63,422 nucleotides of DNA, taken from assembly GCF_017426725.1 (NCBI RefSeq), contig NZ_JAERMS010000013.1, forward strand, positions 1 through 63,422. The letters are read 5' to 3'. Every line of letters starts with the position of its first letter. The stretch's first letter is position 1. The notes below the pieces were generated by a model that saw only the letters and a list, made by a program, of their open reading frames with translations, did not search any database and was not told the origin of the DNA. Made by a program: the position numbers and the translations under genes. This DNA comes from Prevotella illustrans. Its GTDB lineage: Bacteria; Bacteroidota; Bacteroidia; Bacteroidales; Bacteroidaceae. Positions 9,400-59,415 of this stretch are shown here, in pieces.

Positions 9400-9496
9400 T
9401 CCGAGGCCTCGGATGAGTGGAAAACAAGAAAAACAGTGCTTCCGAGGCCTCGGATGAGCGGAAAATGAGAAAATCTACGCTTCGGCCACGGCCGAA
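9400..9496. repeat. 41-bp-period palindrome array A (three units)
   Basis: TCCGAGGCCTCGGA is present at 9400-9413 and 9441-9454, and TTCGGCCACGGCCGAA at 9481-9496. The palindrome centres are 9406.5, 9447.5 and 9488.5, exactly 41 apart. The linkers share a GGAAAA...AGAAAA pattern. The third palindrome differs in sequence but remains symmetrical. With the stem-loop element this fills the 378-base gap between ORF6N and trpB. Confidence 0.85.
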
Positions 9497-9606
9497 ATGC
9501 AGAAAACGGTAAAATCTATGGGGCTTACGGTTGAATACATTTGTTAAGCCAATATATTTATATTTCATACCTTATCATTCTAAAATAATCAGTACGGACA
9601 AGGGTG

Positions 9607-10809
9607 TTAGAAGTTACCATACTCTTTGGCGAGGGCCTTGTTCTTGAGATAAGTATCTACGTCTTTGTCGCCACGTCCGCTGACTGTCAGCACGACAATA
9701 TCGTCACTTTTAAATTCTATTTTACTCAAGGCCGCAACGGCATGGGCACTCTCAATAGCCGGGATGATACCCTCCATTCGGGTGAGTTCATAACCCGCGT
9801 AAATCGTTTCGTCGTCGTTGATGGCCAAGACCTGTGTGCGGCCGCTTTGTGCCAGTTGCGCGTGCATCGGTCCGATACCCGGATAATCCAGTCCGGCACT
9901 GATGGAAAACGCCTCTTTGATTTGTCCGTCATCCGTTTGCATGACGAGGGTGCGCGCTCCATGAATGACACCTTCGGTGCCGCAGTGCATTGTGGCTGCC
10001 GTAAAGTCGGTATCAATTCCTTGACCACCGGCCTCTGCCAGGTATATCTTTACCCTTTCGTCTTCAATGTAGTGATATATGGTGCCTGCGGCGTTACTGC
10101 CTCCGCCAATACAAGCTACCAGATAGTCGGGGTAATCACGTCCGACCTGTTCTTGTAATTGGTATTTTATTTCTTCAGAAATGACACTCTGCATCCTTGC
10201 CACAATGTCGGGATACGGATGAGGTCCCACGGTAGAGCCGACGATATAGAATGTGTCTTGCGGATGGCAGCACCAGTCACGGATGGCTTCTGAGCAGGCG
10301 TTGCTCAGGGTCATGTTGCCTGTCGTGACGGGATGAACCGTTGCTCCTAACATGCGCATGCGTTCTACATTGACATGCTGGCGTTCTATATCGGTGGCAC
10401 CCATGAATATTTCACACTGCATGCCCATCAAGGCGCAAACCGTAGCGGTCGCAACGCCATGCTGGCCTGCGCCGGTTTCGGCAATGATGCGTGTTTTCCC
10501 CATCCGGCGGGCCATCAGAATCTGCCCGACCGTGTTATTTATTTTATGTGCGCCGGTATGATTGAGATCTTCACGCTTCAAGTAGAGCCGGCAACCATAT
10601 TTCTCGCTCATACGCCGGGCATAATAAAGAGGCGAGGGCCGACCCACATAATCCTTCAGCAGTTGATGATACTCTTTCTTGAAAGATTCGCTTTCAAGAA
10701 TGGATTGATAGGACTGTTGCAAATCGGTTACGCACTTGTACAATATCTCCGGAACATAGGCACCGCCAAAGTTTCCGTAAAAGCCATTATTATCGGGTTG
10801 ATTTCTCAT
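9607..10809 (-). CDS. trpB: Tryptophan synthase beta chain
   Basis: This PLP enzyme condenses indole with serine to make tryptophan, normally in an alpha2-beta2 complex with TrpA. At 400 residues it is of standard TrpB1 type. The PLP lysine lies in REDLNHTGAHKINN, and the phosphate-binding loop is GGGSNAAG. The beta-replacement segment ETGAGQHGVA is intact. No trpA is found in the window. It is the last gene of a shortened trp operon, 34 bases after trpF, and converges on the ORF6N gene. Confidence 0.97.
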   Translation of the reverse strand: MRNQPDNNGFYGNFGGAYVPEILYKCVTDLQQSYQSILESESFKKEYHQLLKDYVGRPSPLYYARRMSEKYGCRLYLKREDLNHTGAHKINNTVGQILMARRMGKTRIIAETGAGQHGVATATVCALMGMQCEIFMGATDIERQHVNVERMRMLGATVHPVTTGNMTLSNACSEAIRDWCCHPQDTFYIVGSTVGPHPYPDIVARMQSVISEEIKYQLQEQVGRDYPDYLVACIGGGSNAAGTIYHYIEDERVKIYLAEAGGQGIDTDFTAATMHCGTEGVIHGARTLVMQTDDGQIKEAFSISAGLDYPGIGPMHAQLAQSGRTQVLAINDDETIYAGYELTRMEGIIPAIESAHAVAALSKIEFKSDDIVVLTVSGRGDKDVDTYLKNKALAKEYGNF

Positions 10810-10843
10810 CTTGTTTATATAGTTATCATGTTATAAAAACAAT

Positions 10844-11560
10844 CTATAGGTCTGAACAGCTATTGAGTAAACTGATAAAATCCTTCAATAAAACAACATC
10901 TTTCATTCCGGGGGAAGTCTCGAATCTTGAATTTAAATCTATTCCTGCCATTCGGGGATGGCGCAGAGAATGAATTCGAATGGCGTCGTTGGGGCCAATG
11001 CCGCCACTCAGTAAGAAGGGAATATCTCCATCGTATGATTCGAGCAAAGACCGGTCGAACTGTTGGCCACTACCTCCTTGTAATGGTGTCTTTGTGTCGA
11101 AGAGAAAAAGGTCTACATCGTGCTCATAAGCTTTGTATTGTTCGATATCCTCACGGCTTGCTATTGATATAGTCTTGATTATTTTGATATGTGGTTGAAT
11201 GTCGGGTATTAAAGTAGCCCGTAGATTGCGAATCATCGTGGGACTCTCGTGCCCATGAAGTTGAATATAATCAAGACCGAAAGTGTAAACGCGTGTAATG
11301 ATATTCTGAGCCATATCGTCCACAAAGACGCCAACACGCTTGGGTCTACGCTTCACGGTTGAGGCTGTTGAAGCTATTGGTTCCGTACTAAGAGGCTTTT
11401 TCTCCTTTTGAGTCGAAATCGGCGTTTCCGGCAGCCGTGGAATTGCTGCCACGTAACGTTTGCTCTGTGGGTGGAAGATAAAACCTAACATGTCTACATC
11501 TAAAGCAGAAACTGCTGCTATATTTTTGGCATCACGCATGCCACAAACTTTTATAATCAT
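10844..11560 (-). CDS. trpF: Phosphoribosylanthranilate isomerase with a long insert
   Basis: TrpF isomerises phosphoribosylanthranilate in tryptophan synthesis. The (beta/alpha)8 start MIIKVCGMRD carries the catalytic Cys, and a catalytic Asp is expected in VGVFVDD. Other core strands are DYIQLHGHE and FLLSGGIG. The protein has 238 residues, longer than the usual 200-210. The excess lies at about residues 40-73, a Lys/Pro/Ser/Thr-rich stretch between strands, probably a disordered loop. Its ATG overlaps the TGA of a trpC remnant (ATGA), the normal coupling for an intact trpC-trpF junction. Confidence 0.92.
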   Translation of the reverse strand: MIIKVCGMRDAKNIAAVSALDVDMLGFIFHPQSKRYVAAIPRLPETPISTQKEKKPLSTEPIASTASTVKRRPKRVGVFVDDMAQNIITRVYTFGLDYIQLHGHESPTMIRNLRATLIPDIQPHIKIIKTISIASREDIEQYKAYEHDVDLFLFDTKTPLQGGSGQQFDRSLLESYDGDIPFLLSGGIGPNDAIRIHSLRHPRMAGIDLNSRFETSPGMKDVVLLKDFISLLNSCSDL

Positions 11561-11683
11561 CTTAATTCATTTAAAAATTGATACAATGCAAGGGTGGGTT
11601 GTGAGGATTTCATAAAGTATTGTTTCTTCACGGGTTAGCAACTCGTGATTCATGATTCTGGAAAAAACTTCTTTTGTATCCAT
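11557..11683 (-). pseudogene. trpD-trpC deletion scar
   Basis: An ATG at 11683 opens a 38-codon frame that begins MDTKEVFSRIMNHELLTREE, like the N-terminus of anthranilate phosphoribosyltransferase (TrpD), and then turns into unrelated sequence ending at TGA (11567). From about 11622 another frame reads QYFMKSSQPTLALYQFLNEL followed by R and a TGA that overlaps the trpF ATG. This resembles the C-terminus of TrpC. The simplest reading is one deletion joining the first 20 or so codons of trpD to the last 20 or so of trpC out of frame. The TrpD match is the weaker of the two. Confidence 0.6.
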
Positions 11684-11720
11684 AAGTTATATATTTTAGA
11701 TATAAGCAAAGTTGAATGAT

Positions 11721-11750
11721 AAAAAAGGCCTGCCGTAAGAACGACAGGCC
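11721..11750 (-). terminator. trp attenuator terminator
   Basis: On the minus strand GGCCTGTCG pairs with CGGCAGGCC (one U-G pair) and is followed by a run of T residues. It lies between the leader peptide and the trpD remnant, the position of a classical transcription attenuator. Confidence 0.85.
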
Positions 11751-11792
11751 CCCAATATGTATTTCTTATATGAATGATAACACACGGCTTCG

Positions 11793-11855
11793 TTACTCAC
11801 GACTTTTGAATCTTGAGCTACGCCACCACCATGATGCTGTTAAAATCATATTCAT
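11793..11855 (-). CDS. trpL: trp leader peptide
   Basis: This 20-codon frame encodes MNMILTASWWWRSSRFKSRE, with three consecutive Trp codons, just downstream of a strong promoter and upstream of a terminator hairpin. Ribosome stalling at the Trp codons when charged tRNA-Trp is scarce should favour read-through into trpF-trpB. It is short, but the triple Trp, the position and the terminator together make the call firm. The leader now controls a damaged operon. Confidence 0.85.
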   Translation of the reverse strand: MNMILTASWWWRSSRFKSRE

Positions 11856-11882
11856 ATTTGCAATGAGATTAATAATCAGTTG

Positions 11883-11913
11883 CAAATATACGGCTTTTCT
11901 GTAAACCGACAAA
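11883..11913 (-). promoter_or_regulatory. trp operon promoter
   Basis: On the minus strand TTTG (11913-11910), a 19-base gap and TATATTTG (11890-11883) form a full consensus promoter, about 28 bases before the trpL ATG. Confidence 0.75.
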
Positions 11914-12119
11914 TATTTTTATATAAAAAGTGAAGAAAAAGTAGTGTTTTGTTAGTAAACAGGTTAAAATATACGCATGCTCCTGACGAATATACCGGTG
12001 ATGAAACCTCCTGCTTCACCATTTAAGTCCATCCTGCTTCCCGTGGTTTTGTCAGAAAAAATGCCCTGATTTTAACACTTCCGCAACGCTTCATCCGGCT
12101 GCCGGCACGGCGGAAAAAG

Positions 12120-12279
12120 TCCTTCGCTTTGCCGATTTTTTATACCCTTTTACGCCCAAAGCTATGCTTTTATCGGCTCAAAGCATAGCGATTACACCGC
12201 CAAAGCATAACTTTTAGCCGGCAAAAGGGCCGCGATTATGGCCTAAAAGCATAGCGATTAAAGGTAAAAAAGCGAAGGA
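12120..12279. repeat. 22-bp-period palindrome array D, flanked by an inverted repeat
   Basis: Five 15-bp units of the form CAAAGCTATGCTTTT, some degenerate, have centres at 12164, 12186, 12208, 12230 and 12252, exactly 22 apart. TCCTTCGCTTT (12120-12130) and AAAGCGAAGGA (12269-12279) are perfect inverted flanks. A related array is at 52476. The bases 11941-12119 before it hold no gene I can support. Confidence 0.8.
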
Positions 12280-12447
12280 TAAATACACTAAAAAGCACAA
12301 ACTATTGATAACCAGCGTTTTATAAACTCGCTCTACAATCGCTTATTTTCGTCCGTCTCTTTTCTTTTTCCAAATAAGGCCACTTTTTTGAGGGTAGATG
12401 TAAAGATTATTCAGGGTAAAGACATAAGGACAGATTTTCCATGTGTT

Positions 12448-12628
12448 TTTTTTGACATAAAGACATAAAGACATATTTTTATATGAGGCGTCGCAAGCGA
12501 CGGAATAAAGACATAAAGCTAATCACACTTCACATTAGCTTTATGTCTTTTTGGGCCGCTTGCGGCCCTTATGTCTTTGTTCCTCGCGGCCGAAAAATAT
12601 GTCCTTATGTCTTTATGTCAAAAAACAA
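12448..12628. repeat. Nested palindromes with a GACATAAAG repeat
   Basis: TTTTTTGACATAAAGACATA around 12453-12472 is repeated inverted at about 12608-12627. Inside lie three perfect hairpins: CGTCGC/GCGACG (12489-12502), AAAGACATAAAGCTAAT with its complement (12507-12550), and GGGCCGC/GCGGCCC (12553-12568). Another copy of the outer arm follows near 12642. Reading frames that cross this stretch are repeat artefacts. The bases 12280-12447 and 12660-12870 contain no gene I can support. Confidence 0.75.
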
Positions 12629-12870
12629 CAACCTAAGAAAAATATGTCCTTATGTCTTATTGCTTTTACAACAAGGTTTGCAAGATACGTCTTCATTTTC
12701 TTTTTGTCAAGCTTCTTATTAAGGGTTTTTAAGGAGATATTAAGGTTTTTAAGATGCGATAATGCGTTAAAAATGACCTTTCCATTAAAAAATCTCAAAT
12801 TCGCAACTCATTTTTTGTTATTTTTGTGTAGCCGTTTGCTGTTTTCGCACGAAACGAACAACCCGGCAGG

Positions 12871-13001
12871 CGTAGGGGCGTGATTCATCACGTTCCGAAT
12901 CCCACGAGAAAACAAACAATCACGCCCCACGCCATGACAATGAACCCGACGCTGGCGGCTCACGCCACGACAGGCGGAACGTGATGAATCACGCCCCTAC
13001 G
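12871..13001. repeat. 27-bp perfect inverted repeat
   Basis: CGTAGGGGCGTGATTCATCA plus CGTTCCG at 12871-12897 is exactly reverse-complemented at 12975-13001. The 77 bases between are GC-rich with further ACGCC motifs. Repeats beginning GTAGGGGCG are common intergenic elements in many bacteria, so this is probably one member of such a class. Confidence 0.75.
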
Positions 13002-13048
13002 GCTGACGCCACGACGCGCCCCCGATAACCCGCAACCCTATATATAAT

Positions 13049-13345
13049 GAAAGAATTTGGAGGATTTGGAAAGATTTGTAGAATTTACTCGCCTGTCGGC
13101 TCATCAACTCGTCTCGGCGAAGCCGACTGAAGGAGTGTGCCTCACGGCACAGAAATCTTACAAATCGGGACAAATCGAACAAATAGATACAGATGGAAAA
13201 GGATTTGTAGAATTTGGAAAGATTTGTAGAATTTCTCGGCGAAGCCGACTGAAAAAGAATGTGCCTCCCAGCACAGACGTGTTGATGAGCCGTCAGGCGA
13301 GTAAATCCTACAAATCGGGACAAGTCGAACAAATAGAAAAGGAAT
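13049..13345. repeat. GxxExxY-associated hairpin repeats, upstream units
   Basis: There are two units of about 148 bp before the GxxExxY gene. Each starts with GATTTGGAAAGATTTGTAGA-like sequence, has an inner TCGGC/GCCGA hairpin and a GTGCC/GGCAC hairpin, and ends in ACAAATCGGGACAAATCGAA. The outer arms are complementary (12 of 14 inner and 12 of 16 outer positions), so each unit can fold on itself. The second unit carries the GTTGATGAGCCGTCAGGCGA block inverted relative to the others. Confidence 0.8.
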
Positions 13346-13348
13346 AGC

Positions 13349-13774
13349 ATGAATTTGATAGACAGACATAACAAGAAGTATGAGTTCTTCTGTGAGATAA
13401 CCGGAGAGGCTATGCGTGTGCACCGCGAATATCACCATGGTCTGTTAGAATCTGCCTATGAGGCGGCATTGAAATACTTGCTGGAACAGAAAGGATTCAA
13501 GGTTGAACAACAGGTTATGCTTCCCATCTATTGGAAAACCGTCAGACTTGAGCAAACCTATAGAATGGATTTGGTGGTAAACGGAAATATCATTATAGAA
13601 CTGAAAGCAATTAACCATGTTGACACTCCTCATCGTCGTCAGCTTTGGAACTATATGAACCTGACCCACCTACCTTATGGTATGCTGATAAATTTCAGTC
13701 CTGATGGTTTGTATTCTGAATGGTATCACCGCAACGAAGTCACAGGAGAAATAGACAAAATCAAGCTTATGTAA
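13349..13774 (+). CDS. GxxExxY family protein (PD-(D/E)XK-like)
   Basis: This 141-residue soluble protein contains the name-giving GLLESAY (about residue 31), a conserved CEITGEAMRVHRE lead-in, and RMDLVVNGNIIIELKAI. The last gives the D...ELK pattern of the PD-(D/E)XK nuclease fold (PDDEXK_3-like). Biological function is not established. The gene sits alone, enclosed on both sides by long hairpin repeats, and starts four bases after the end of one unit. Its AT-rich composition contrasts with the GC-rich island downstream. The start ATG gives MNLIDRHNKKYEFFCEITG, the usual length before the first motif. Confidence 0.88.
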   Translation: MNLIDRHNKKYEFFCEITGEAMRVHREYHHGLLESAYEAALKYLLEQKGFKVEQQVMLPIYWKTVRLEQTYRMDLVVNGNIIIELKAINHVDTPHRRQLWNYMNLTHLPYGMLINFSPDGLYSEWYHRNEVTGEIDKIKLM

Positions 13775-13775
13775 A

Positions 13776-14250
13776 ATGGAGGATTTGGAAGATTTACTCG
13801 GCGCAGCCGACTGAAAGAGAGTGTGCCTCACGGCACAGAAATCTTACAAATCGGGACAAATCGAACAAATAAATATAGATGAAAAAGGATTTGGAGAATT
13901 TGGAAAGATTTGGAGGATTTATTCGCCTGACGACTCATCAACTCGTCTCGGCGCAGCCGACTGTAGGAGTGTGTCTCTCGGCACAGAAATCTTACAAATC
14001 GGGACAAATCGAACAAATAAATATAGATGAAAAAGGATTTGGAGAATTTGGAAAGATTTGGAGGATTTATTCGCCTGACGACTCATCAACTCGTCTCGGC
14101 GCAGCCGACTGGAAGGAGTGTCCTGCGGACAGAAATCTTACAAATCGGGACAAATCGAACAAATAAATATAGATGAAAAAAGATTTGGAAGATTTGGAAA
14201 GATTTGGAGGATTTCTCGGCGAAGCCGACTGAAAAAGAGTGTGCCTCACA
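13776..14250. repeat. GxxExxY-associated hairpin repeats, downstream units
   Basis: A shortened unit (13776-13886), two full units (13887-14034, 148 bp, and 14035-14180, 146 bp) and a 5' half-unit (14181-14250) follow the gene in direct orientation. They match the upstream units closely. The units are open in several frames on both strands, so predicted proteins here repeat one another and are not considered genes. Beyond them, 14251-14330 contains a CGGGCGGGCCGCCCG hairpin and a TATATGTATAATAAG tail. Confidence 0.8.
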
Positions 14251-14383
14251 ATAGTCATCCGACCCCACGCTAACGGGCGGGCCGCCCGATAATACGCAAC
14301 TATATGTATAATAAGATGAAAAACGGCAAATGCCGGCAGGCTTTCCGGCCTCTCAAAAAACATTCCTACAAATGCCGACAGCC

Positions 14384-14644
14384 TTGCCGAGGTTCGGCAA
14401 ACGTCAAGACGTAACGGATGTTAAATGCCGAGGTTCGGCAAACGTCAAGACGTAACAGATGTTAAATGCCGAGGTTCGGCAAACGCCAAGACACAACGGA
14501 TGTTAAATGACGAGGTTCGGCAAACGTCAAGACACAACGGATGTTAAATGCCGAAGCTCGACAAACGTCAAGGCGTAACAGATGTTAAATGCCGGAGTTC
14601 GGCAAACGTCAAGGCAAACGACGGCAGACTTTCCGAAGCTCGGC
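14384..14644. repeat. 41-bp-period palindrome array B1 (seven units)
   Basis: The units are centred on GCCGAGGTTCGGC-type dyads at 14392, 14433, 14474, 14515, 14556, 14597 and 14638, each exactly 41 apart. Linkers read AACGTCAAGACGTAACGGAT followed by GTTAAAT, with small changes. Dyad variants include GCCGGAGTTCGGC and TCCGAAGCTCGGC. There is no unique spacer, and 41 is not a multiple of three, so it is neither CRISPR nor coding. It marks the left edge of the GC-rich surface-protein island. Confidence 0.9.
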
Positions 14645-14718
14645 AAACGCCCCGGCAAACGAGGGGACAAAAAACAAGAAATCATTTTTAATCATTTAAT
14701 CAAAAAAAAGAATTTATT

Positions 14719-15534
14719 ATGGCAAACGAAAGCAAAGTAGCTCAGGTTGGTACCATTGACTTGCACAGCCTGACCAACGACGCTCACTTCATCTATATGA
14801 AGGACGTGGAGAATGTGATAGAAGAAGACGAGGCGGCAAAAACCGTGGCGAGAATACAAACCGCCGTGAAAGCCCTCAAGGAAGCCGTGAAGGAGGAAGA
14901 CGAACGCCTCATCCTCTCGAAGAAAAGTCAATACACCGACCAGATTGCCGCCAAGGACCGCGAGCGCGACTCCATTTTCCGAGGCTACCGCACCGCCGTG
15001 AAGGGAATGCTGCGCATGCCCGTGGCGGAAATGGCCGAGTCGGCCGCCGACCTGTGGCAGCACCTCAAGGACTACAACATCGACCCCGAGATGCAGCTCG
15101 AGCGCGAGACGGCGCGCATCATGAACCTCGTCGACGACCTCAACACCAAGTTCGCCACGCAGGTGAGCAAGCTCGGTCTGAAGCCCTACGTCGACGCCCT
15201 CAGGGCAGCCAACGACACGGTGGAAGAACTGCTCGCCACCCGCACCGACGATCGCTCGCAGCAGATAGCCGGCGCGCTGCGCAAGGCACGCTTGGCAAGC
15301 GACGAGGCCTATCTGGACACCGTGCGCCTGATCAACGCCATGGCCGTGGTGGGCACCGAGAAGAGCCTCACGCCGCTCATCAACTACCTCAACGCCAACA
15401 TCAAGCGCTACAAGGAGCAGGTGATGACGCGCGGCAAGAAAAAGGACGACGACCGACCCGAGAAGTACGGCGGCGACAACACGACGACCGCCCGCACGGC
15501 CGACACGCTTACGGCAGCGGACGAGAATTCATAA
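14719..15534 (+). CDS. DUF6261 family protein
   Basis: This 271-residue, soluble, highly helical and charged protein begins with a short strand and then DLHSLTNDAHFIYM, a stretch I associate with the Bacteroidetes family DUF6261. Function is unknown. No signal peptide is seen, unlike its neighbours. The C-terminal 40 residues are Lys/Asp/Thr-rich and probably disordered. It opens the GC-rich island, with the large surface gene only 30 bases away, so the two are likely co-transcribed. Codon use is clearly richer in G/C at third positions than in the genes outside the island. Confidence 0.7.
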   Translation: MANESKVAQVGTIDLHSLTNDAHFIYMKDVENVIEEDEAAKTVARIQTAVKALKEAVKEEDERLILSKKSQYTDQIAAKDRERDSIFRGYRTAVKGMLRMPVAEMAESAADLWQHLKDYNIDPEMQLERETARIMNLVDDLNTKFATQVSKLGLKPYVDALRAANDTVEELLATRTDDRSQQIAGALRKARLASDEAYLDTVRLINAMAVVGTEKSLTPLINYLNANIKRYKEQVMTRGKKKDDDRPEKYGGDNTTTARTADTLTAADENS

Positions 15535-15564
15535 AACAAAACTTTTACTAAAATAATAAGCAAA

Positions 15565-22691: not shown

Positions 22692-22743
22692 CGCCCGCCA
22701 TCCTATATATATAATAAGGTGGAAACGACAAACGACGGGAGAC

Positions 22744-22801
22744 TTGCCACAGCGTGGCAAACGTCACGGCAAACGACGGCGGCCTTGCCGAAGCTCGGCA
22801 A
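22744..22801. repeat. 41-bp-period palindrome array B2 (two units)
   Basis: TTGCCACAGCGTGGCAA is centred at 22752 and TTGCCGAAGCTCGGCAA at 22793, exactly 41 apart. The arms differ by compensating changes (GCCAC/GTGGC against GCCGA/TCGGC). It marks the right edge of the surface-protein island. The rest of the 22646-23008 gap holds a promoter and an untranslated leader. Confidence 0.8.
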
Positions 22802-22939
22802 ATATTTTCCTCATTGATGATTTCCTACTTCCTCCGAATTTGGTGGCAAACGCTCATAAGGGATGCAAAAAGTCCGTGTTTTTGTACAGAACAAATTGAA
22901 AAAACATTATTCAGTCGCAGAATTATCTATACTTTTGAC

Positions 22940-29446: not shown

Positions 29447-29632
29447 ATGAATATCAACGAACGCACGAAGGAAGGACGCAGCATCGTGGACTACCTGCGC
29501 GAAAAGGGTTTGATATCAACAGCCAAGACAGACAACGGAAGAGAGGCTACGCGCCGTGCACTCCGCGAATTGAGCGAGGGCAAGGTAACCCATTGTAGAA
29601 ATTTTGACGACTATCTGAAAAGTGTCAAGTGA
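29447..29632 (+). CDS. RelB/DinJ-like antitoxin
   Basis: This small basic/acidic protein of 61 residues starts at an ATG eight bases after a strong AGGAGG ribosome site (29434-29439), so a longer upstream reading is rejected. The sequence MNINERTKEGRSIVDYLREK and the terminal FDDYLKSVK fit antitoxins that neutralise YafQ/RelE toxins, although similarity to DinJ is not strong. Its stop overlaps the toxin start (TGATG). Such pairs usually autoregulate; no operator was identified beyond the promoter. Confidence 0.75.
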   Translation: MNINERTKEGRSIVDYLREKGLISTAKTDNGREATRRALRELSEGKVTHCRNFDDYLKSVK

Positions 29633-29937
29633 TGCGTGAAATCGTCTATACAGGGCAATATAAGCGCGACTTGAAGCGTGCCCGCAAACGTCGGATGCCG
29701 GAAGATGACCTTAACGAAGGCATTCGCCTACTGGCAGAAGACAAACCATTGCCCGCAGAAAGACGCGACCATGCACTTACAGGCGAATTCTCCGGGCTGC
29801 GTGAATGCCACATTCATCCCGATTGGCTGTTGGTGTACAGCAAAGAAGATGTCATTTCTGCAGAAAAGGAATCAGTGGAAAAGGAATTGCATATTCTGAT
29901 TCTTATACGCACCGGCACACACGCCGATTTGTTCTGA
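29632..29937 (+). CDS. YafQ/RelE-type mRNA interferase toxin
   Basis: This 101-residue protein is basic at the N-terminus, with KRDLKRARKRRM, then LAEDKPLPAERRDHALTGEF and RECHIHPDWLLVYS. The last block is the YafQ signature and includes the catalytic His pair. YafQ toxins cut mRNA on the ribosome. The C-terminus ends RTGTHADLF, the usual 'tGsHsdLF'-type ending, which argues that the toxin is intact. Translation is coupled to the antitoxin by a one-base overlap. The pair lies directly before a stem-loop element and a palindrome array. Confidence 0.88.
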   Translation: MREIVYTGQYKRDLKRARKRRMPEDDLNEGIRLLAEDKPLPAERRDHALTGEFSGLRECHIHPDWLLVYSKEDVISAEKESVEKELHILILIRTGTHADLF

Positions 29938-29962
29938 CATTTCTTTTGCGGAAATCTTTTCC

Positions 29963-30043
29963 GTCCCACGTTCACGAGCAGAGCGTGGGACGCTTGTTTT
30001 CCCACAAACCGCCAGCCGAGATTTTTTGTTTTCCGTCGTGTGG
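29963..30043. repeat. Dispersed stem-loop element, copy 2
   Basis: GTCCCACG (29963-29970) pairs with CGTGGGAC (29984-29991), followed by CTTGTTTTCC, CAAACCGCC and GTTTTCCGTCGTGTG. It is closely similar to copy 1 at 9286 over its full length. As there, it lies just after an accessory gene and just before a 41-bp array. Confidence 0.75.
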
Positions 30044-30055
30044 TCTATGTTGAAA

Positions 30056-30250
30056 TGCTCTCTCGGGAGCAGAAAACTGCGATTTTTCTTCGGAAATAGC
30101 CGTCGGGAACTCAGAAATCGCGATTTTTCGACAGAAATCGCCGTCGGGAACTCAGAAACTGCAGGTTTTTGACAAAAATAGCCGTCGGGAACTCAGAAAC
30201 TGCAGTTTTTCAGCAAAACTTCCTGTAAGGAGCAAATAAATCGCGATTTT
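30056..30250. repeat. 41-bp-period palindrome array C (five units)
   Basis: Core palindromes have centres at 30079.5, 30120.5, 30161.5, 30202.5 and 30243.5, exactly 41 apart. In units 2 and 5 the core is AAATCGCGATTT, and in unit 4 it is AAACTGCAGTTT; units 1 and 3 are near-symmetrical forms. Units 2-4 share GCCGTCGGGAACTCAGAAA before the core. The sequence family differs from arrays A and B, but the period is the same. Confidence 0.88.
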
Positions 30251-30275
30251 TCAGTAATCTTTTAGCCAAAAATCC

Positions 30276-30452
30276 ATGGAAATCAAGACAATCAACAAGG
30301 CACTCTACCAGCCGCGTCAGGAGGAAAGAACCAAGGGTCTGGAGAAGTTGGATCGCAAGCGCGACCAAGCCTACGCTCGCTGCAACACGGTCGAAAAGAA
30401 ATCGACGCGCACCACGACTGCTCCGGAAACGCCTGCTACTGAAGCGCCGTAG
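30276..30452 (+). CDS. Small charged hypothetical protein
   Basis: This 58-codon frame starts MEIKTINKALYQPRQEERTK, continues Lys/Arg/Glu-rich, and ends in a Thr/Pro/Ala-rich tail. It directly follows palindrome array C and ends 25 bases before a strong terminator, which supports its being a real, separately terminated gene. No clear ribosome site or promoter was found. No family is recognised. Confidence 0.4.
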   Translation: MEIKTINKALYQPRQEERTKGLEKLDRKRDQAYARCNTVEKKSTRTTTAPETPATEAP

Positions 30453-30477: not shown

Positions 30478-30529
30478 AACAAGACGAACCTCGAAAGTCA
30501 ATCATCCGACTTTCGAGGTTCGCCTTGTT
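30478..30529. terminator. Bidirectional terminator
   Basis: AACAAG and CGAACCTCGAAAGTC pair with GACTTTCGAGGTTCG and CTTGTT, a stem of about 22 bp with one mismatch and an eight-base loop, with a TTGTTTT tail on the plus side. It separates the small gene from rny, which converges on it. Confidence 0.85.
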
Positions 30530-30597
30530 TTCTCCCCATGGAGAACTTCGGCCCGGCAAGAGCCTCTGTTTTATGATGGTAGAATGGCCCCTGCCGG

Positions 30598-51824: not shown

Positions 51825-51839
51825 AAAGGAGGACAACGT

Positions 51840-52428: not shown

Positions 52429-52582
52429 ACCCGTTGTAATGCGGTTTTTTGCTAACTTGGATGCTTTTGCGTTCTAAAAGCTATGCTTTTGGAATGTAAA
52501 AGCTATCCTTTTAGGGGCTGAAAGCTATGCTTTTGTACCGTCAAAGCAGCCCTTTTACAAGTAATTTGCTTACAAAATGGGT
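52429..52582. repeat. 22-bp-period palindrome array D2, with inverted flanks
   Basis: Four 15-bp units, AAAAGCTATGCTTTT and variants, have centres at 52483, 52505, 52527 and 52549, exactly 22 apart. ACCCGTTGTAA (52429-52439) and TTACAAAATGGGT (52570-52582) are imperfect inverted flanks. A 15-bp direct repeat TTTTGTAAAGTATTT lies further out at 52346-52360 and 52715-52729. TTTTAACACTTC precedes both this array and array D. Confidence 0.8.
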
Positions 52583-52652
52583 GAGAATGAGCGCGCATGA
52601 ATGGTCTTGAAAACGTAAATAGTTGATTGTCAAATGTTTATGATTATTGCCG

Positions 52653-52832: not shown

Positions 52833-52863
52833 TTTGTAATCTCGCCAAATTAATATATCTTTG
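52833..52863 (+). promoter_or_regulatory. ilv operon promoter
   Basis: TTTG (52833-52836), a 19-base gap and TATCTTTG (52856-52863) give a full consensus promoter about 60 bases before the ilvD start. No leader peptide rich in branched-chain residues was found. Confidence 0.75.
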
Positions 52864-52930
52864 CAATTTAATATGAAGTCCTTGTCGGATTTCGCGGATG
52901 GATAATAGAGAAAGAATTAAAATCGTAATT

Positions 52931-54733: not shown

Positions 54734-54739
54734 AGAATT

Positions 54740-56455
54740 ATGGCAAAAGAAGTCATAACAGGGGCAGAAGCGCTGATGCGTTCACTGCACAAGGAAGGCG
54801 TGGAAACAATCTTTGGGTATCCCGGAGGTGCGATCATGCCTGTTTTTGATCATTTGTATCATTATACACGAGGCGAGTCAAAGATGTTTGACCATATTCT
54901 GGTCAGACACGAGCAGGCCGCCGCGCATGCGGCCCAAGGCTACGCACGGGTGAGTGGAGACGTTGGCGTATGCCTGGTAACGAGCGGACCGGGGGCCACG
55001 AATACTTTGACGGGCGTGGCCGACGCGATGATGGACTCTACGCCACTGGTGGTCATTGCCGGCCAGGTGGGAGTAGGCGCGCTCGGAACAGACGCTTTTC
55101 AGGAGGTAGACTTGGTGGGTGTGGCACAGCCAATCACCAAGTGGGCCTATCAGATACGCCGACCGGAAGATGTGGCATGGGCTGTGAGCCGTGCGTTCTA
55201 TATCGCTCGCAGCGGCCGCCCCGGCCCGGTTGTGCTTGACTTTCCTAAAAACGCGCAGACACATACATGCGAGTGGATTGACGTAAAGGTAGATCATGTG
55301 CGGTCGTATGAGCCTTATCCTAAGTTGAAGGAGGATGTTATCCGGCGTGCCGCGGACCTGATCAATCAGGCCGAGCGCCCTTTTGCCCTTGTGGGACAAG
55401 GAGTAGAGTTGGGGAATGCGCACCATGAATTGATGGAATTTCTGGAGAAGGCCGATATTCCCGCGGGCCGAACTTTACTCGGATTGTCGGCTTTGCCAAG
55501 TAATCATCCGCTGAATATGGGCATGTTGGGTATGCATGGCAGTTACGCGACCAACTTGAAGACGCAGGAGTGTGACGTGCTGATAGCCATTGGCATGCGT
55601 TTCAGCGATCGTGTGACGGGAGTACCTTCTACCTACGCGAAGCAGGCTCACATTATTCATTTGGATATTGACAGCGCGGAGATTAACAAGAATATCAAAT
55701 GTGAGGTGCCGGTAATCGGCGATTGCAAGAAGTCGCTGCCGGCAATAACCCGCCTTTTAAAGAAGAACAGCCATACGGAGTGGATAGCTTCTTTCGAGAC
55801 CTATCGGCAGATGGAGGAAGAACAGGTCATTCAGCCCGACATTCATCCCGCCGAAGGACCGCTGCTCATGGGCGAGGTGGTCAATGTGGTGGCTGAAGCT
55901 ACGGCGGGGAAAGCTGTGTTGGTGAACGATGTAGGCCAGAATCAGATGATTTCGAGTCGCTACTTTAAGTTCCATACCCGGCGTTCTATCGTGACAAGTG
56001 GCGGTTTCGGCACGATGGGCTTCGGGCTTCCTGCGGCAGTAGGTGCTACTTTTGGATCGCCCGACCGTACAGTTTGCTGCTTTATGGGAGATGGCGGTTT
56101 TCAAATGAGCATTCAGGAATTAGGTACGATTATGGAGCAACAGGCTCCTGTCAAGATGATTCTCTTGAACAACAATTACTTGGGTAATGTCAGACAATGG
56201 CAGGATTTGATGTTTGGTGGTCGCCGGTCGTTCACCCACATGATGAATCCACGTTATGCCGACATCGCTAAAGGCTATGGTATTCCGTATGATATAGCGG
56301 TCGACAGAAGGGATTTGAAGAAGAAAGTAGCACAGATGTTGAACACTGAAGGCCCTTATCTGCTTGAATGCGTAATCAAGGAAGACGAGGACATCGTGCC
56401 GATGACCATGCCGGGAAAAAGTGTTGACGAGATGCAGCTGACACTTACGTATTAA
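54740..56455 (+). CDS. ilvB: Acetolactate synthase large subunit
   Basis: This ThDP- and FAD-dependent enzyme makes acetolactate or acetohydroxybutyrate. It has 571 residues and three domains. The N-terminal ThDP-binding part has the activating Glu in VRHEQAAAHAAQGYARVSG. The C-terminal part has the GDG...NN cofactor motif (MGDGGFQMSIQELGT through LLNNNYLGNVRQWQ). It starts six bases after ilvD, and its regulatory subunit is the next gene. Confidence 0.97.
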   Translation: MAKEVITGAEALMRSLHKEGVETIFGYPGGAIMPVFDHLYHYTRGESKMFDHILVRHEQAAAHAAQGYARVSGDVGVCLVTSGPGATNTLTGVADAMMDSTPLVVIAGQVGVGALGTDAFQEVDLVGVAQPITKWAYQIRRPEDVAWAVSRAFYIARSGRPGPVVLDFPKNAQTHTCEWIDVKVDHVRSYEPYPKLKEDVIRRAADLINQAERPFALVGQGVELGNAHHELMEFLEKADIPAGRTLLGLSALPSNHPLNMGMLGMHGSYATNLKTQECDVLIAIGMRFSDRVTGVPSTYAKQAHIIHLDIDSAEINKNIKCEVPVIGDCKKSLPAITRLLKKNSHTEWIASFETYRQMEEEQVIQPDIHPAEGPLLMGEVVNVVAEATAGKAVLVNDVGQNQMISSRYFKFHTRRSIVTSGGFGTMGFGLPAAVGATFGSPDRTVCCFMGDGGFQMSIQELGTIMEQQAPVKMILLNNNYLGNVRQWQDLMFGGRRSFTHMMNPRYADIAKGYGIPYDIAVDRRDLKKKVAQMLNTEGPYLLECVIKEDEDIVPMTMPGKSVDEMQLTLTY

Positions 56456-56492
56456 ATTAAGATCATGTCGCAAACATTATAGATAGAGAAAA

Positions 56493-57035
56493 ATGATGGA
56501 TAGTAATAAGAAATTATATACATTATTGGTTTATTCTGAAAATATAGCCGGTATACTGAACCAGATTACGGCAGTGTTTACAAGACGACAGGTTAACATA
56601 GAGAGTCTCAATGTGTCGGCCAGCAGTATTGCCGGTATTCATAAATATACAATTACTGTTTGGAGTGACGAAGAGCAGATTGTGAAAATAACGAAATCCA
56701 TTGAAAAAAAGATAGATGTGGTGAAAGCAAACTACTTTTTGGATGACGATCTGTTTATTCATGAGGTCGCGCTTTTCAAGATTTCTACGCCTGTTTTGAT
56801 GGAGCATTCTGAAATATCTCGCAGCATTCGTAAGCACGACGCCCGCATGATGGAGGTGAATCCTACATACGCGACGGTGTTGTTGGCCGGTCTTACAGAG
56901 GATATTGCCGATTTGTTCAATCAATTGAATGAGTTTGGATGCCTTCTTCAATACACTCGCTCCGGACGGATTGCCGTCACCCGTAGTAAGGAAGAGATGA
57001 TCTCAGATTATTTGGAAACTCAAGAGAAAAGATAA
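56493..57035 (+). CDS. ilvN: Acetolactate synthase small (regulatory) subunit
   Basis: The 180-residue protein has an N-terminal ACT domain (LLVYSENIAGILNQITAVFT, then RRQVNIESLNVSAS) that binds the feedback inhibitor valine in this family, and a C-terminal domain that stimulates the large subunit. The start could be the ATG at 56493 or the one three bases later. Order ilvB-ilvN is normal. Confidence 0.94.
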   Translation: MMDSNKKLYTLLVYSENIAGILNQITAVFTRRQVNIESLNVSASSIAGIHKYTITVWSDEEQIVKITKSIEKKIDVVKANYFLDDDLFIHEVALFKISTPVLMEHSEISRSIRKHDARMMEVNPTYATVLLAGLTEDIADLFNQLNEFGCLLQYTRSGRIAVTRSKEEMISDYLETQEKR

Positions 57036-57040
57036 TAAAA

Positions 57041-57805
57041 ATGAAGCTTGGCAAGATAGGTGAGTATGAATTTGTAGCAGAACCTTTTCATTGCGATTTT
57101 TCTCATCAGCTGATGTTGGGACATCTGGGCAATTCCATGCTCAACGCGGCCGATTATCACAGCAATGATCGCGGATATGGCATGGAATACCTCAATACGG
57201 TTCATCGTACATGGGTGTTGAGTCGGTTGGCCATTGAGATGGAACGCATGCCCAAGGCGTATGATAAATTCAAGATCGCTACATGGGTTGAAAGCGCGAT
57301 GAAGTATTTTACGAGCCGAAACTTTGCCGTTATGTCGGCCGACGGCCGGCCATTAGGCTACGGGCGTAGCATTTGGGCAATGATAGATACCGATACTCGA
57401 CAGCCTGTGGATATTCTGGCGGTTCGTGATGGCTTGATATCTGAATATATTGAAACAGACCAACCATGCCCTATTTGTAAAAGCTCGCGGGTGAAAATAG
57501 ACGATGATGTTGAACTCGTAAGAAGCGTTTCTACTTATTATAGTGATGTAGATGTTAATGGGCACGTCAATTCCGTGAAATATATTGAGCATGTACTTGA
57601 TTTATTTGATATAGATTTTTATAAGACGCATCGCTTGAAACGAATGGATGTTGCTTATGTCGCGGAAAGTCATCAGGGGGATTTGCTGAATTTCTATGTG
57701 CAGCAAATGGGTGATACTCATATAATTAGAATTACTAAATCGTCTTGTTCTAAGACTGAAGAGGTTGAGGTTGTTAGGGTTTCAATGGATTTTATAAAAG
57801 AATGA
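57041..57805 (+). CDS. Acyl-ACP thioesterase
   Basis: This 254-residue protein has two hot-dog domains. It resembles FatA/FatB-type bacterial acyl-ACP thioesterases: the first domain has LGHLGNSMLNAADYHSNDRG, the second has YYSDVDVNGHVNSVKYIEHV with the Asn/His of the active region. It would release free fatty acids from acyl-ACP. It lies five bases after ilvN, inside the branched-chain operon; this is a recurrent arrangement in Bacteroidetes and may link branched-chain amino acid and branched fatty acid supply. Confidence 0.9.
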   Translation: MKLGKIGEYEFVAEPFHCDFSHQLMLGHLGNSMLNAADYHSNDRGYGMEYLNTVHRTWVLSRLAIEMERMPKAYDKFKIATWVESAMKYFTSRNFAVMSADGRPLGYGRSIWAMIDTDTRQPVDILAVRDGLISEYIETDQPCPICKSSRVKIDDDVELVRSVSTYYSDVDVNGHVNSVKYIEHVLDLFDIDFYKTHRLKRMDVAYVAESHQGDLLNFYVQQMGDTHIIRITKSSCSKTEEVEVVRVSMDFIKE

Positions 57806-57813
57806 AATTGTAT

Positions 57814-57844
57814 TTTGGTATTTGATAATAATTGTTTACCTTTG
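57814..57844 (+). promoter_or_regulatory. ilvC promoter
   Basis: TTTG (57814-57817), a 19-base gap and TACCTTTG (57837-57844) fit the consensus, so ilvC has its own promoter and a leader of about 140 bases. Confidence 0.7.
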
Positions 57845-57956
57845 CACGCGTTATAATTTTGTTCCTAAGCTGCTTCTTTGAATAATTGGTGGATGGATCC
57901 GATGATTGATTGTTTTTGGATAAAGCGGATTGGATTCAGTAGGAAATAGTCAACCC

Positions 57957-57976
57957 GTAGCCACTTTTGAGGCTAC
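57957..57976 (+). promoter_or_regulatory. Hairpin in the ilvC leader
   Basis: GTAGCC (57957-57962) pairs with GGCTAC (57971-57976), ending 15 bases before the ATG at 57992. A role in translation control is possible but unproven. Confidence 0.35.
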
Positions 57977-57991
57977 ACAAAGATTTTATTT

Positions 57992-59035
57992 ATGGCAGAA
58001 ATGAATTTCGGTGGCGTTGTAGAGACTGTGGTCACCAGTAAGGAGTTTTCCTTGGAAAAAGCTCGTGAAGTGTTGAAAAATGAAACAATAGCCGTTCTCG
58101 GTTATGGTATTCAGGGTCCGGGACAGGCTTGCAACTTGCGTGACAATGGCTTTAACGTGATTATTGGTCAGCGTGAAGGCAAGACTTATGAGAAAGCGAT
58201 TGCTGACGGATGGGTGCCGGGAAAGACTTTATTTTCGATTGAGGAAGCCGTACAGCGTGGTACTATTGTATGTATGTTGCTGTCCGATGCGGGCCAGATT
58301 GCTGTTTGGCCGAAGATTAAGCAGTACCTGACTTCAGGCAAGACGCTTTATTATTCTCATGGTTTTGTCATTAACTGGAACGACCGTACGGGCGTGGTTC
58401 CTCCTTCGGATGTCGATGTTGTCATGGTTGCGCCGAAGGGATCGGGTACTTCTCTTCGTACGATGTTCTGCGAAGGCAGGGGATTGAACAGCTCTTATGC
58501 TATTTATCAGGATGCTACCGGTCACGCGGAAGAAAAGACGATAGCCCTCGGTATTGGTATCGGTTCCGGTTATCTCTTTAAAACAACATTCCAAAGAGAG
58601 GCAACCTCTGACCTTACAGGCGAGCGTGGCACATTGATGGGTGCGATTGAAGGTCTTTTAGAAGCACAATATGAAGTTCTTCGTGAGCATGGTCATTCTC
58701 CTTCGGAAGCCTTCAATGAAACCGTTGAGGAGCTTACGCAGAGTTTGATGCCGTTGTTCGGCGCGAATGGGATGGATTGGATGTACGCTAATTGTTCGAC
58801 CACGGCTCAGCGGGGCGCGCTGGATTGGGCACCTCGGTTCCGCGAAGCGATCAAGCCTGTTATGGAGTGGCTCTATCTTAGCGTGAAGACCGGCAACGAA
58901 GCACAGATTTCCATAGACCGGAACTCACAGCCCGATTATCGTGAAAAGCTGAATGCCGAGCTGAAAGCGATGCACGATAAGGAAATGTGGCGTGCCGGTG
59001 AGACCGTAAGGAAGCTGAGACCGGAAAATAACTGA
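57992..59035 (+). CDS. ilvC: Ketol-acid reductoisomerase
   Basis: IlvC converts acetolactate to dihydroxyisovalerate with NAD(P)H and Mg. The 347-residue protein has the nucleotide motif LGYGIQGPGQACNLRDNG near residue 35, MVAPKGSG, the metal/substrate block SDLTGERGTLMGAIEGLLEA and ANCSTTAQRGALDW near the C-terminus. It follows the thioesterase but has its own promoter and terminator. Confidence 0.96.
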   Translation: MAEMNFGGVVETVVTSKEFSLEKAREVLKNETIAVLGYGIQGPGQACNLRDNGFNVIIGQREGKTYEKAIADGWVPGKTLFSIEEAVQRGTIVCMLLSDAGQIAVWPKIKQYLTSGKTLYYSHGFVINWNDRTGVVPPSDVDVVMVAPKGSGTSLRTMFCEGRGLNSSYAIYQDATGHAEEKTIALGIGIGSGYLFKTTFQREATSDLTGERGTLMGAIEGLLEAQYEVLREHGHSPSEAFNETVEELTQSLMPLFGANGMDWMYANCSTTAQRGALDWAPRFREAIKPVMEWLYLSVKTGNEAQISIDRNSQPDYREKLNAELKAMHDKEMWRAGETVRKLRPENN

Positions 59036-59063
59036 TTTTTCTCATACATAACATATTAATGAA

Positions 59064-59095
59064 GGGAGTTTTCCACTGTGGAAAGCTCTCTTTTT
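59064..59095 (+). terminator. ilvC terminator
   Basis: GGGAGTTTTCCAC pairs with GTGGAAAGCTCTC (G-U pairs included) and is followed by five T residues. Confidence 0.85.
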
Positions 59096-59234
59096 ATTTG
59101 GGTATATGCGAAAGAGGAACGTGAGGGAAGGGGAGAGCGATAATTGGCTTTACCTTATTTTATTATTGCTGTCCGATAAACAATTATAACGATAAATCAT
59201 GCCTCTTCGCCGTCCCGGCAAATGCCGACAGCCT

Positions 59235-59415
59235 TTCCGGGCTCTCGGAAGACGTCAAAGCAAAACAGATGTTAAATGCCCAGCTTGGGCAAATGCCAAG
59301 GTATAACAGGTGTTAAATGCCGGAGTTCGGTAAACGCCAAAGCAAAACAGATGTTAAATGCCGGAGTTCGGCAAACGCCACGGCAAATGACGGCAGCCTT
59401 TCCCGGCGCGTGGAA
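59235..59415. repeat. 41-bp-period palindrome array B3 (five units)
   Basis: Dyads are centred at about 59242.5, 59284, 59325, 59366 and 59407: TTCCGGGCTCTCGGAA, GCCCAGCTTGGGC, GCCGGAGTTCGGT, GCCGGAGTTCGGC and a GGCGCG-cored TTTCC/GGAAA form. Linkers (AACAGATGTTAAAT) match array B1. The arms differ between units yet stay complementary. The rest of 59096-59559 contains no gene I can support. Confidence 0.88.

What the first reader, a model, noticed from the sequence alone, without database searches (positions are those of the whole stretch)
9400..59415. Unrelated palindrome arrays that share an exact 41-bp period
Five arrays in three sequence families all keep palindrome centres exactly 41 bp apart: A (9406.5, 9447.5, 9488.5), B1 (seven centres, 14392-14638), B2 (22752, 22793), C (30079.5-30243.5, five centres) and B3 (59284, 59325, 59366, 59407). 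The sequences of A, B and C do not align with one another, so the shared spacing is not explained by common ancestry alone. Forty-one base pairs is close to four turns of B-DNA, which would put every palindrome on the same face. This suggests binding by a dimeric protein that polymerises along DNA, or a copying mechanism with a fixed step. There are no unique spacers as in CRISPR, and 41 is not a coding period.
Basis: partly seen in the sequence, partly recalled or inferred. Interest (0 to 1): 0.85.

Follow-up and report, generated by a model that had tools for sequence, protein, structure and literature searches.

The report
Gene-linked DNA arrays with fixed pitch
In bacteria of the order Bacteroidales, most of the examined genes for an unstudied protein called DUF6261 have just in front of them a row of DNA repeats whose letters differ almost completely from gene to gene while the 40-43 base-pair pitch stays, and such a row is likely a DNA scaffold on which a paired protein, predicted to be DUF6261 itself, would line up every two turns of the double helix.

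Summary
In detail: the 21 listed palindrome centres are there, 41 bp apart, a few of them imperfect. In 816 kb of this genome 13 of 22 runs of three or more equidistant palindromes are at 41 bp (shuffled sequence: 3 runs at all spacings together). What the arrays share is a gene. B1 lies directly upstream of a DUF6261 (PF19775) gene; C is followed by a DUF6261 relic; so is another array with A's leader; B3 is a B array inside a 396-bp MITE-like element.

Across Bacteroidales, 108 of 136 examined DUF6261 genes have an array within 500 bp upstream, 107 of them at 40-43 bp or double that. Downstream: 6 of 135. Upstream of other genes: 3 of 115, none at this period. About 100 unrelated unit sequences share the period. 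In 26 of 99 units a second, unrelated palindrome sits exactly half a period away (shuffles: mean 0.9), so dyads recur every two helical turns. Strand tests gave no clear RNA signature.

Best reading: a face-phased DNA scaffold, probably for DUF6261. Binding is untested; DUF6261 is acidic without a recognised DNA-binding domain, many arrays have no DUF6261 beside them, and the window's own units lack the half-period dyad.

The parts
9281..9376 (+). leader of array A with an inverted repeat (GTCCCACG..CGTGGGAC), shared with C
   Evidence: blastn self-match window 9281-9376 to 29958-30049, 80% over 97 columns; sequence
9399..9497 (+). array A: three palindromes, centres 9406.5, 9447.5, 9488.5; the third (TTCGGCCACGGCCGAA) differs in sequence from the first two
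14379..14649 (+). array B1: seven palindromes 41 bp apart, directly upstream of the DUF6261 gene
   Evidence: upstream autocorrelation z 18.5 at lag 41
14719..15534 (+). DUF6261 (PF19775) gene, 271 aa, predicted all-helical protein
   Evidence: Pfam E 3.4e-46; AlphaFold mean pLDDT 81.0, pTM 0.51
22725..22802 (+). array B2: two palindromes behind a B-type leader (TATATATAATAAGGTGGAAACGACAAACGACGG); no DUF6261 gene found within 600 bp
29958..30049 (+). leader of array C, homologous to the leader of A
30070..30250 (+). array C: five palindromes, centres 30079.5-30243.5
30258..30449 (+). open frame directly after array C that holds a DUF6261 relic (first ATG at 30276; shorter than the gene, apparently by internal deletion)
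   Evidence: profile match of this frame, E 9e-5; frame read as it stands
59155..59163 (.). left copy of the 9-bp target-site duplication (TTATTTTAT)
59164..59559 (+). MITE-like element with terminal inverted repeats (TATTGCTGTCCG.. / ..CCGGACACTAATA) carrying array B3
   Evidence: of 9 related copies inspected, the 4 in which a pattern found both ends have 9-bp duplications matching at 8 or 9 of 9 positions
59245..59415 (+). array B3: four palindromes, centres 59284-59407
59560..59568 (.). right copy of the target-site duplication; its first three bases are the stop codon of the recQ-like gene on the minus strand

Best explanation
By sequence or by neighbourhood the five arrays belong to a class of tandem DNA arrays that is found directly upstream of most DUF6261 genes examined in Bacteroidales and keeps a 40-43-bp period whatever its sequence, and such an array is likely a double-stranded DNA scaffold on which a dimeric protein, predicted to be the neighbouring DUF6261 protein, would assemble with one twofold contact every two helical turns. 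Shown: the gene linkage, the fixed period in about 100 unrelated sequences, palindromes above chance, a second unrelated palindrome exactly half a period from the first in about a quarter of units, and no clear RNA strand signature. Inferred: each protomer covers ~20.5 bp and touches two different half-sites, so protomers would meet head-to-head at one dyad and tail-to-tail at the next, all on one face of B-DNA. That would explain why two dyads of unrelated sequence alternate at equal steps and why the period stays at four turns while the letters drift with the cognate protein. Arrays away from any DUF6261 gene (some spread by MITEs, such as B3) would be further docking sites or decoys. The cellular output (autoregulation, local silencing, segregation or selfish spread) is not known; autoregulation of DUF6261 is the guess I would test first.
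For: Linkage: 136 non-duplicate DUF6261 ORFs with >=400 bp upstream, 108 with a periodic array in the 500 bp upstream (z>=8), 107 of these at lag 40-43 or 82-86; downstream 6 of 135 (two of the six at 42 and 84); 115 upstreams of other ORFs in the same loci 3, none at 40-43 or 80-86. Of the 28 misses, 15 have their best sub-threshold lag at 41-43 or 83-84. Period: 116 of 136 upstreams give a TRF unit of 39-44 bp: 40 (5), 41 (56), 42 (47), 43 (8). Sequence freedom: 103 clusters at 66% identity among 116 arrays; unit identity at shuffled level (0.41-0.42) when proteins are <50% identical and 0.62-0.78 above 70%; Mantel r 0.27, 0 of 500 permutations; at least 35 period changes on the protein tree. 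Palindromes: mean score 5.76 against 4.16 shuffled, Wilcoxon p 4.5e-16; 40 of 116 at p<=0.05. Half-period dyad: score >=4 in 26 of 99 non-redundant units, 200 shuffles mean 0.9, maximum 5; z 13.3 at exactly P/2, 3.5 or less at +-0.5 bp; symmetry mostly above chance from 1.5 to 8 bp from the second centre and back to chance at 8.5-9.5; the two halves share no sequence (0.254 against 0.255). DNA rather than RNA: stems change half as often as linkers within arrays (0.070 against 0.140), and G-U-type and A-C-type changes are equal in stems (84:85; linkers 504:393); sense strand no more foldable than antisense. Where a promoter-like -7 motif is seen, the array lies after it in some loci and before it in others, which suits a DNA site better than an RNA leader.
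Against: No binding was tested. The DUF6261 domain is acidic (median pI 5.7, n=134), has no recognised DNA-binding domain and its models have no significant Foldseek match. The A, B, C and C116 units of this genome score 0-2 at half period, and 73 of 99 units do not reach score 4 there. Palindrome p<=0.05 in only 40 of 116 units taken singly. Many arrays are not beside DUF6261: 6 of 26 are in the G000 sample (3 genes, 3 relics), 1 of 15 in 400 kb of G499, and G015 has 5 arrays, one A-like, but no DUF6261 was found in that genome. Different stems within one array suggest that pairing, not sequence, is kept, which a sequence-specific binder would not need.
Confidence: 0.42

Rival explanations
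1. [quoted passage not shown]
For: Array on the 5' side of the gene, 2-13 units; -7 motif upstream of the array in 9 of 54 loci with a short gap (expected 1.5); linkers A-rich on the gene strand (A 923, T 558); palindromes could be hairpins with 3-4 nt loops; raw stem mismatches lean slightly to G-T (119 against 90 A-C), and in B-type boxes pair 6-10 is G-T in 15 and A-C in 3 of 54; terminator-like signals between array and gene exceed expectation (9 of 116, expected 1.3).
Against: No G-U tolerance in stem changes when set against linkers (84:85 against 504:393) and no per-array bias (24 against 26); antisense folds as well as sense; terminator-like signals are in few loci and as many on the antisense strand (14 of 116); in the long-gap loci the -7 motif lies between array and gene (14 of 46, expected 4.3); no ToxN-type domain; a fixed four-turn period and half-period dyads are not needed by RNA.
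Confidence: 0.18
2. The palindromes are single-stranded DNA hairpins processed or copied by DUF6261, a REP/RAYT-like partnership in which the gene-linked array is the parent and the solo arrays are its offspring.
For: Solo arrays related to gene-linked arrays in the same genome: 22 B-like matches at about 20 places in G000, B1-B3 included, further places in G095 and G154; different stems within one array with pairing kept above independence at pairs 3-13, 4-12 and 5-11 but not at 2-14, 6-10 and 7-9; no strand preference.
Against: No conserved H-x-H motif in DUF6261. The B copies with mapped ends sit in elements with terminal inverted repeats and 9-bp duplications, the mark of an ordinary cut-and-paste transposase. 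Hairpin processing does not predict half-period spacing.
Confidence: 0.15
3. The arrays are selfish minisatellites carried by MITEs, and the period reflects a slippage or amplification mechanism with a fixed step; DUF6261 is a passenger or a preferred neighbour.
For: B3 and related copies are in MITE-like elements; P. gingivalis MITE464/PgRS carries 41-nt tandem repeats (PMC4596501, section 7); many arrays have no DUF6261.
Against: Strong and one-sided linkage to DUF6261; stems conserved over linkers; half-period dyads of unrelated sequence need selection or a very peculiar copying process.
Confidence: 0.15
4. Another DNA-binding host protein forms the lattice, and DUF6261 is only regulated by it.
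For: DUF6261 is acidic; arrays persist in G015, where no DUF6261 was found; a second, unrelated family has 21-bp arrays on its 3' side.
Against: 103 unrelated unit clusters, several in one genome, would have to be read by the same host protein.
Confidence: 0.1

Closest known systems
MITE464/PgRS and BrickBuilt of Porphyromonas gingivalis (PMC4596501; abstract and first part of section 7 read)
   Same: MITE-like elements of a Bacteroidales species with tandem repeats of 41 nt (464/PgRS) or 23 nt (BrickBuilt) inside; B3 is built the same way
   Different: Different terminal repeats (the paper reports ends like those of IS5-family elements; here TATTGCTGTCCGG with 9-bp duplications); no linked protein family, palindrome geometry or rule for the period was reported in the parts read
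Type III toxin-antitoxin systems (ToxIN, AbiQ, TenpIN, CptIN; PMC5086642, passages)
   Same: Tandem repeat array on the 5' side of a protein gene
   Different: No ToxN-type domain, terminator-like signal in few loci, no clear RNA signature, fixed pitch, dispersed solo arrays
REP/REPIN-RAYT (REPtron) pairs (PMC3733652 passages; PMC8266576 abstract)
   Same: Palindromic repeats tied to one protein gene and dispersed as solo copies in the genome
   Different: DUF6261 has no HUH motif; arrays are tandem rows with fixed pitch; dispersal of B goes at least partly by MITE-like elements
Plasmid iterons and parS-type or ParR-bound arrays (recalled, no call)
   Same: Helically phased protein sites next to the gene of the binding protein
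   Different: No replication or partition domain recognised in DUF6261; units have unrelated sequence at most loci; two dyads of different sequence alternate in a quarter of units

Membership tests
REP/RAYT (REPtron) | HUH motif and catalytic tyrosine in the linked protein | tested here: not met
   No H-x-H among conserved residues: H23-F24 is the only (nearly) invariant histidine of 72 sequences; the closer set of 30 adds H115
REP/RAYT (REPtron) | palindromes beside the gene and dispersed elsewhere in the genome | tested here: met
Type III toxin-antitoxin | tandem repeat array directly 5' of the protein gene | tested here: met
   108 of 136
Type III toxin-antitoxin | ToxN/AbiQ-type endoribonuclease | tested here: not met
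   Pfam scan of six DUF6261 proteins gives only PF19775 above cut-off; fold comparison says nothing either way
Type III toxin-antitoxin | Rho-independent terminator between array and gene | tested here: inconclusive
   Terminator-like signal in 9 of 116 loci on the sense strand and 14 on the antisense, 1.3 expected; a crude consensus scan that includes the last palindrome
Type III toxin-antitoxin | toxicity of the protein and neutralisation by array RNA | not testable with these tools
   needs expression
CRISPR array | unique spacers between repeats | tested here: not met
   In the window's arrays whole 41-bp units repeat, with no unique spacers
MITE (array B3 only) | terminal inverted repeats, target-site duplication, no coding capacity, several copies | tested here: met
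   Of 9 related copies inspected, 4 had both ends by pattern and all 4 show 8-9 of 9 bp duplications; one end seen in further copies
MITE464/PgRS of P. gingivalis | ends GAGACTGTTGCA / TGCAACGGTCTC | tested here: not met
   B3 ends are TATTGCTGTCCG / CCGGACACTAATA against the paper's table
Cognate operator or iteron array bound by DUF6261 | the neighbouring protein binds the array | not testable with these tools
   inferred from linkage and geometry

The most novel reading that the evidence does not exclude
Bacteroidales have a family of DNA-scaffold systems in which selection fixes the geometry, one twofold axis every two turns of B-DNA, but not the sequence: each DUF6261 protein reads its own pair of alternating half-sites and polymerises head-to-head and tail-to-tail along its array, protein and array drift together so fast that about 100 mutually unrelated 'alphabets' exist, and MITEs spread the docking arrays through the genome. 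A second, unrelated protein family with 21-bp arrays on its 3' side would be an independent invention of the same two-turn lattice.
Probability: 0.3. Interest if true: 0.93.

Novelty: categorically new. Interest (0 to 1): 0.83.

Why it matters
It turns a curiosity of one contig into a rule that can be tested in any Bacteroidales genome: where there is a DUF6261 gene, expect a 40-43-bp array just upstream, whatever its letters. It gives a first lead on a protein family with no known function, offers a context for the 41-nt repeats reported in oral Bacteroidales, and, if the lattice model holds, provides about 100 natural pairs of protein and target for studying how DNA recognition changes while geometry stays fixed.
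Full report
WHAT WAS CLAIMED AND WHETHER IT IS THERE. Direct reading confirms them, with 30079.5 and 59407 the weakest centres. TRF assigns period 41 to each array. The window is a whole contig (C32) of a 3.09-Mb, 138-contig genome, G000. Named relatives of its DUF6261 protein are in oral-type Prevotellaceae: 95% identity in Prevotella sp. oral taxon 376, 94% in Segatella buccae and Hoylesella pleuritidis. B-like sequence gives 22 matches at about 20 places in G000, B1, B2 and B3 included; A-like arrays are on C18, C63 and C95 besides the window; C is at one other place, C9. In 815,961 bases of G000 (window plus 40 stretches, chosen mostly because they hold arrays), 13 of 22 runs of three or more equidistant palindromes are at 41 bp and 3 at 82; one shuffled copy gives 3 runs at all spacings. 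In that strict scan only A and B1 of the window's arrays register. Of 44 tandem arrays with period >=25 bp, 26 are at 40-43 bp or multiples.

WHAT TIES THE THREE FAMILIES TOGETHER. Pfam finds three DUF6261 (PF19775) genes in G000 and none in 14 control genomes. Each is directly downstream of a 41-bp array: B1 in the window, a B-like array on C97, and on C116 an array with the unrelated palindrome TTCCCAACTTTGGGAA. A profile of the family also finds three relics in the 816-kb sample: in the frame at window 30258-30449, directly after array C (E 9e-5); on C9 after the other C array (5e-5); and on C63 after an array that begins with A's leader and first unit (6e-6). So an intact DUF6261 gene or a relic lies next to at least one array of each of the three kinds. 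A and C also share a leader. The window's own A array, B2 and B3 have no DUF6261 match within 600 bp; in the sample 6 of 26 arrays do. B3 is carried by a 396-bp MITE-like element (59164-59559) with a 9-bp target duplication; of 9 related copies inspected, the four in which a pattern found both ends have such duplications at 8 or 9 of 9 positions. In one relative, G013, the genes that flank B3 are close neighbours with no array between them. Other B copies sit in a second frame with different ends (GGTTCGGAATAAG..).

THE LINKAGE IS GENERAL. DUF6261 is in 11 of 60 genomes drawn from the genus, 33 of 251 of the family and 46 of 393 of the order, G000 counted in each, with up to 14 matches in a genome. 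I collected 141 loci (3 own, 11 genus, 9 named, 29 family, 40 further places order and 20 further places; L092 and L102 left out beforehand), found 143 DUF6261 ORFs in them (two loci hold two pieces of a gene) and dropped 3 exact duplicates. A first count on 92 loci gave 70 of 89 upstream and 6 of 90 downstream. The full count: of 136 ORFs with at least 400 bp upstream, 108 have an array (autocorrelation z>=8, lags 12-100 scanned), 97 at lag 40-43, 10 at 82-86 and one at lag 19 (a B array broken by a run of N); 6 of 135 downstream, two of them at 42 and 84; 3 of 115 upstream of other ORFs in the same loci, none at 40-43 or 80-86. Of the 28 below threshold, 15 still have their best lag at 41-43 or 83-84. 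Distances between successive units of the 99 non-redundant arrays, 371 in all, are 39-43 bp in 353 cases, 82-86 in 17 and 49 in one.

PERIOD WITHOUT SEQUENCE. TRF gives a unit of 39-44 bp for 116 of 136 upstreams: 40 (5), 41 (56), 42 (47), 43 (8). The units form 103 clusters at 66% identity. When the DUF6261 proteins are under 50% identical, units are as alike as shuffled sequence (0.41-0.42); above 70% they are recognisably related (0.62-0.78). On the protein tree (FastTree) the fewest changes of period are 35, yet it stays in the band. Drift with such complete turnover of letters would be expected to widen the period (inference).

A HIDDEN HALF-PERIOD DYAD. Unit consensi are more palindromic than shuffled ones (5.76 against 4.16, Wilcoxon p 4.5e-16), although only 40 of 116 pass p<=0.05 singly. 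Two solo arrays suggested a second palindrome half a period from the first. Over 99 non-redundant units the second dyad scores >=4 at exactly P/2 in 26 (200 shuffles: mean 0.9, maximum 5); the mean score has z 13.3 at P/2 and 3.5 or less at +-0.5 bp. Its symmetry is mostly above chance from 1.5 to 8 bp from the centre (not at every step) and at chance at 8.5-9.5 bp, with a weak rise at 10 (z 2.1), so the unit looks like two ~16-bp dyads with ~4-bp gaps rather than one long palindrome. The halves are unrelated in sequence on average. Examples: L179 CTGCAAATTTGCAG and TTCCCGGAGCGGGAA; L201 CCTGCATACTGCAGG and GTACTGGAATCAGTAC. Against this: the A, B, C and C116 units score only 0-2 at P/2, and 73 of 99 units are below 4.

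DNA OR RNA. Within arrays, stem positions change half as often as linkers (0.070 against 0.140), so the stems are under constraint. Changes that would leave a G-U pair in RNA are no commoner in stems than those that leave A-C (84:85; linkers 504:393; Fisher p 0.13). An earlier raw mismatch count leaned to G-T (119:90) without a per-array bias (24 against 26). Among 54 distinct B-type boxes picked up by a pattern (some of them background), pairing exceeds independence at pairs 3-13, 4-12 and 5-11 but not at 2-14, 6-10 and 7-9; G-T exceeds A-C at pair 6-10 (15 against 3) and not at 7-9 (13 against 12). The sense strand folds no better than the antisense (z -1.45 and -1.65). The -7 motif TAnnTTTG (recalled as the Bacteroidetes consensus) is over-represented upstream of the array when the gap to the ATG is under 70 bp (9 of 54, expected 1.5) and between array and ATG when it is over 120 bp (14 of 46, expected 4.3); most loci show neither. 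Thus the array can apparently be on either side of the start of transcription. Together this favours a DNA-level role, without excluding RNA.

THE PROTEIN. DUF6261 is predicted all-helical (mean pLDDT 81.0, pTM 0.51), with D80, R83, Y119, N136, D140, N165, R191, D195 and N225 invariant in 72 sequences. Its domain is acidic (median pI 5.7, 10-90% range 5.0-8.9, n=134). No relative above cut-off in Pfam or NCBIfam, none in PADLOC, none convincing in PHROGs, no significant Foldseek match. It is a solitary gene with varied neighbours. The B1 module in several relatives lies among large repetitive genes of the kind seen on both sides in the window.

PROPOSED MECHANISM (inferred). Two-turn spacing of dyads, two unrelated dyads alternating, fixed four-turn period and lack of strand bias are what a dihedral protein filament on one face of B-DNA would select: one protomer per ~20.5 bp, head-to-head at one dyad and tail-to-tail at the next, so that each protomer reads two half-sites. 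The neighbouring DUF6261 is the natural candidate, because the unit sequence changes with it. Solo arrays would be extra docking sites.

WHAT DOES NOT FIT. Arrays outnumber DUF6261 genes: in 400 kb of G499, 15 of 19 arrays with period >=25 bp are at 40-43 bp or multiples and only one is beside DUF6261; G015 has 5 of 11 (one A-like) though no DUF6261 was found in its genome; G023, also without DUF6261, has none of 7. Two of the solo G499 arrays lie 3' of genes of another family without a Pfam entry. Of 29 rows with enough sequence on the 3' side (28 genes, because L293 and L346 are the same; L293 and L299 were the seeds), 22 rows, that is 21 genes, have arrays at lag 21, 42, 63 or 84 there, and none has such an array upstream. 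This supports a two-turn rule beyond DUF6261, but these 21-bp arrays are not obviously palindromic and 21 is a multiple of three, so coding was not excluded for them.

COMPARISON. The nearest published things are the 41-nt repeats of MITE464/PgRS and the 23-nt repeats of BrickBuilt in P. gingivalis (PMC4596501), type III toxin-antitoxin loci (PMC5086642 passages) and REPtrons (PMC3733652 passages; PMC8266576 abstract). For the last two a defining protein feature was tested and not met. In the held library I found no report of the DUF6261 link; most subscription papers are not held.

Noticed in passing
L293:470-1739, L299:12842-14400, L326-L352: A second protein family without Pfam entry (consensus MASTSETGHAKN..YNPSN, 22 of 198 genomes of the order) has tandem arrays at lag 21, 42, 63 or 84 bp within 500 bp on its 3' side in 21 of 28 genes, none upstream.
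   Followed up: partly
window 52461-52547 and 25 other places in 816 kb of G000: A separate palindromic family (many units like TAAAAGC..GCTTTTA) with period 22 or 44 bp, as common as the 41-bp class in the sample; also near two helical turns. Its linked gene, if any, was not sought.
   Followed up: no
window 59164-59568: The element that carries B3 is inserted directly against the stop codon of the recQ-like gene (minus strand, ends 59560); its target duplication starts with that stop codon.
   Followed up: partly
L009, L010, L011, L016: B arrays also sit in a second MITE-like frame with ends GGTTCGGAATAAGTTTTT, so two transposon families appear to have taken up the same array.
   Followed up: partly
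window 13797-14214: A 148-bp tandem repeat (2.8 copies, 94% alike) just upstream of the B1 array, with homologues near DUF6261 in relatives.
   Followed up: no
window 29629-29937: A YafQ-type toxin gene of a type II toxin-antitoxin system directly precedes the leader of array C.
   Followed up: no
contig ends of G000: C62 near 38, C127 near 39, C63 near 38648: Ends reading ATTGCTGTCCGGTAAA at contig breaks suggest a multi-copy insertion sequence that may be the parent of the B3-type element.
   Followed up: no
window 30482-30544 (-): Weak match to Rfam P37 (E 0.0089, 32.3 bits, below the gathering score of 50) beside the DUF6261 relic.
   Followed up: no
L312:2765-3012 (genome G015): An array with nearly the same unit as window array A (TCCGAGGGCTCGGATGAGCAGAAAACAAGAAAAAATGG) in a related genome in which no DUF6261 was found.
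   Followed up: partly
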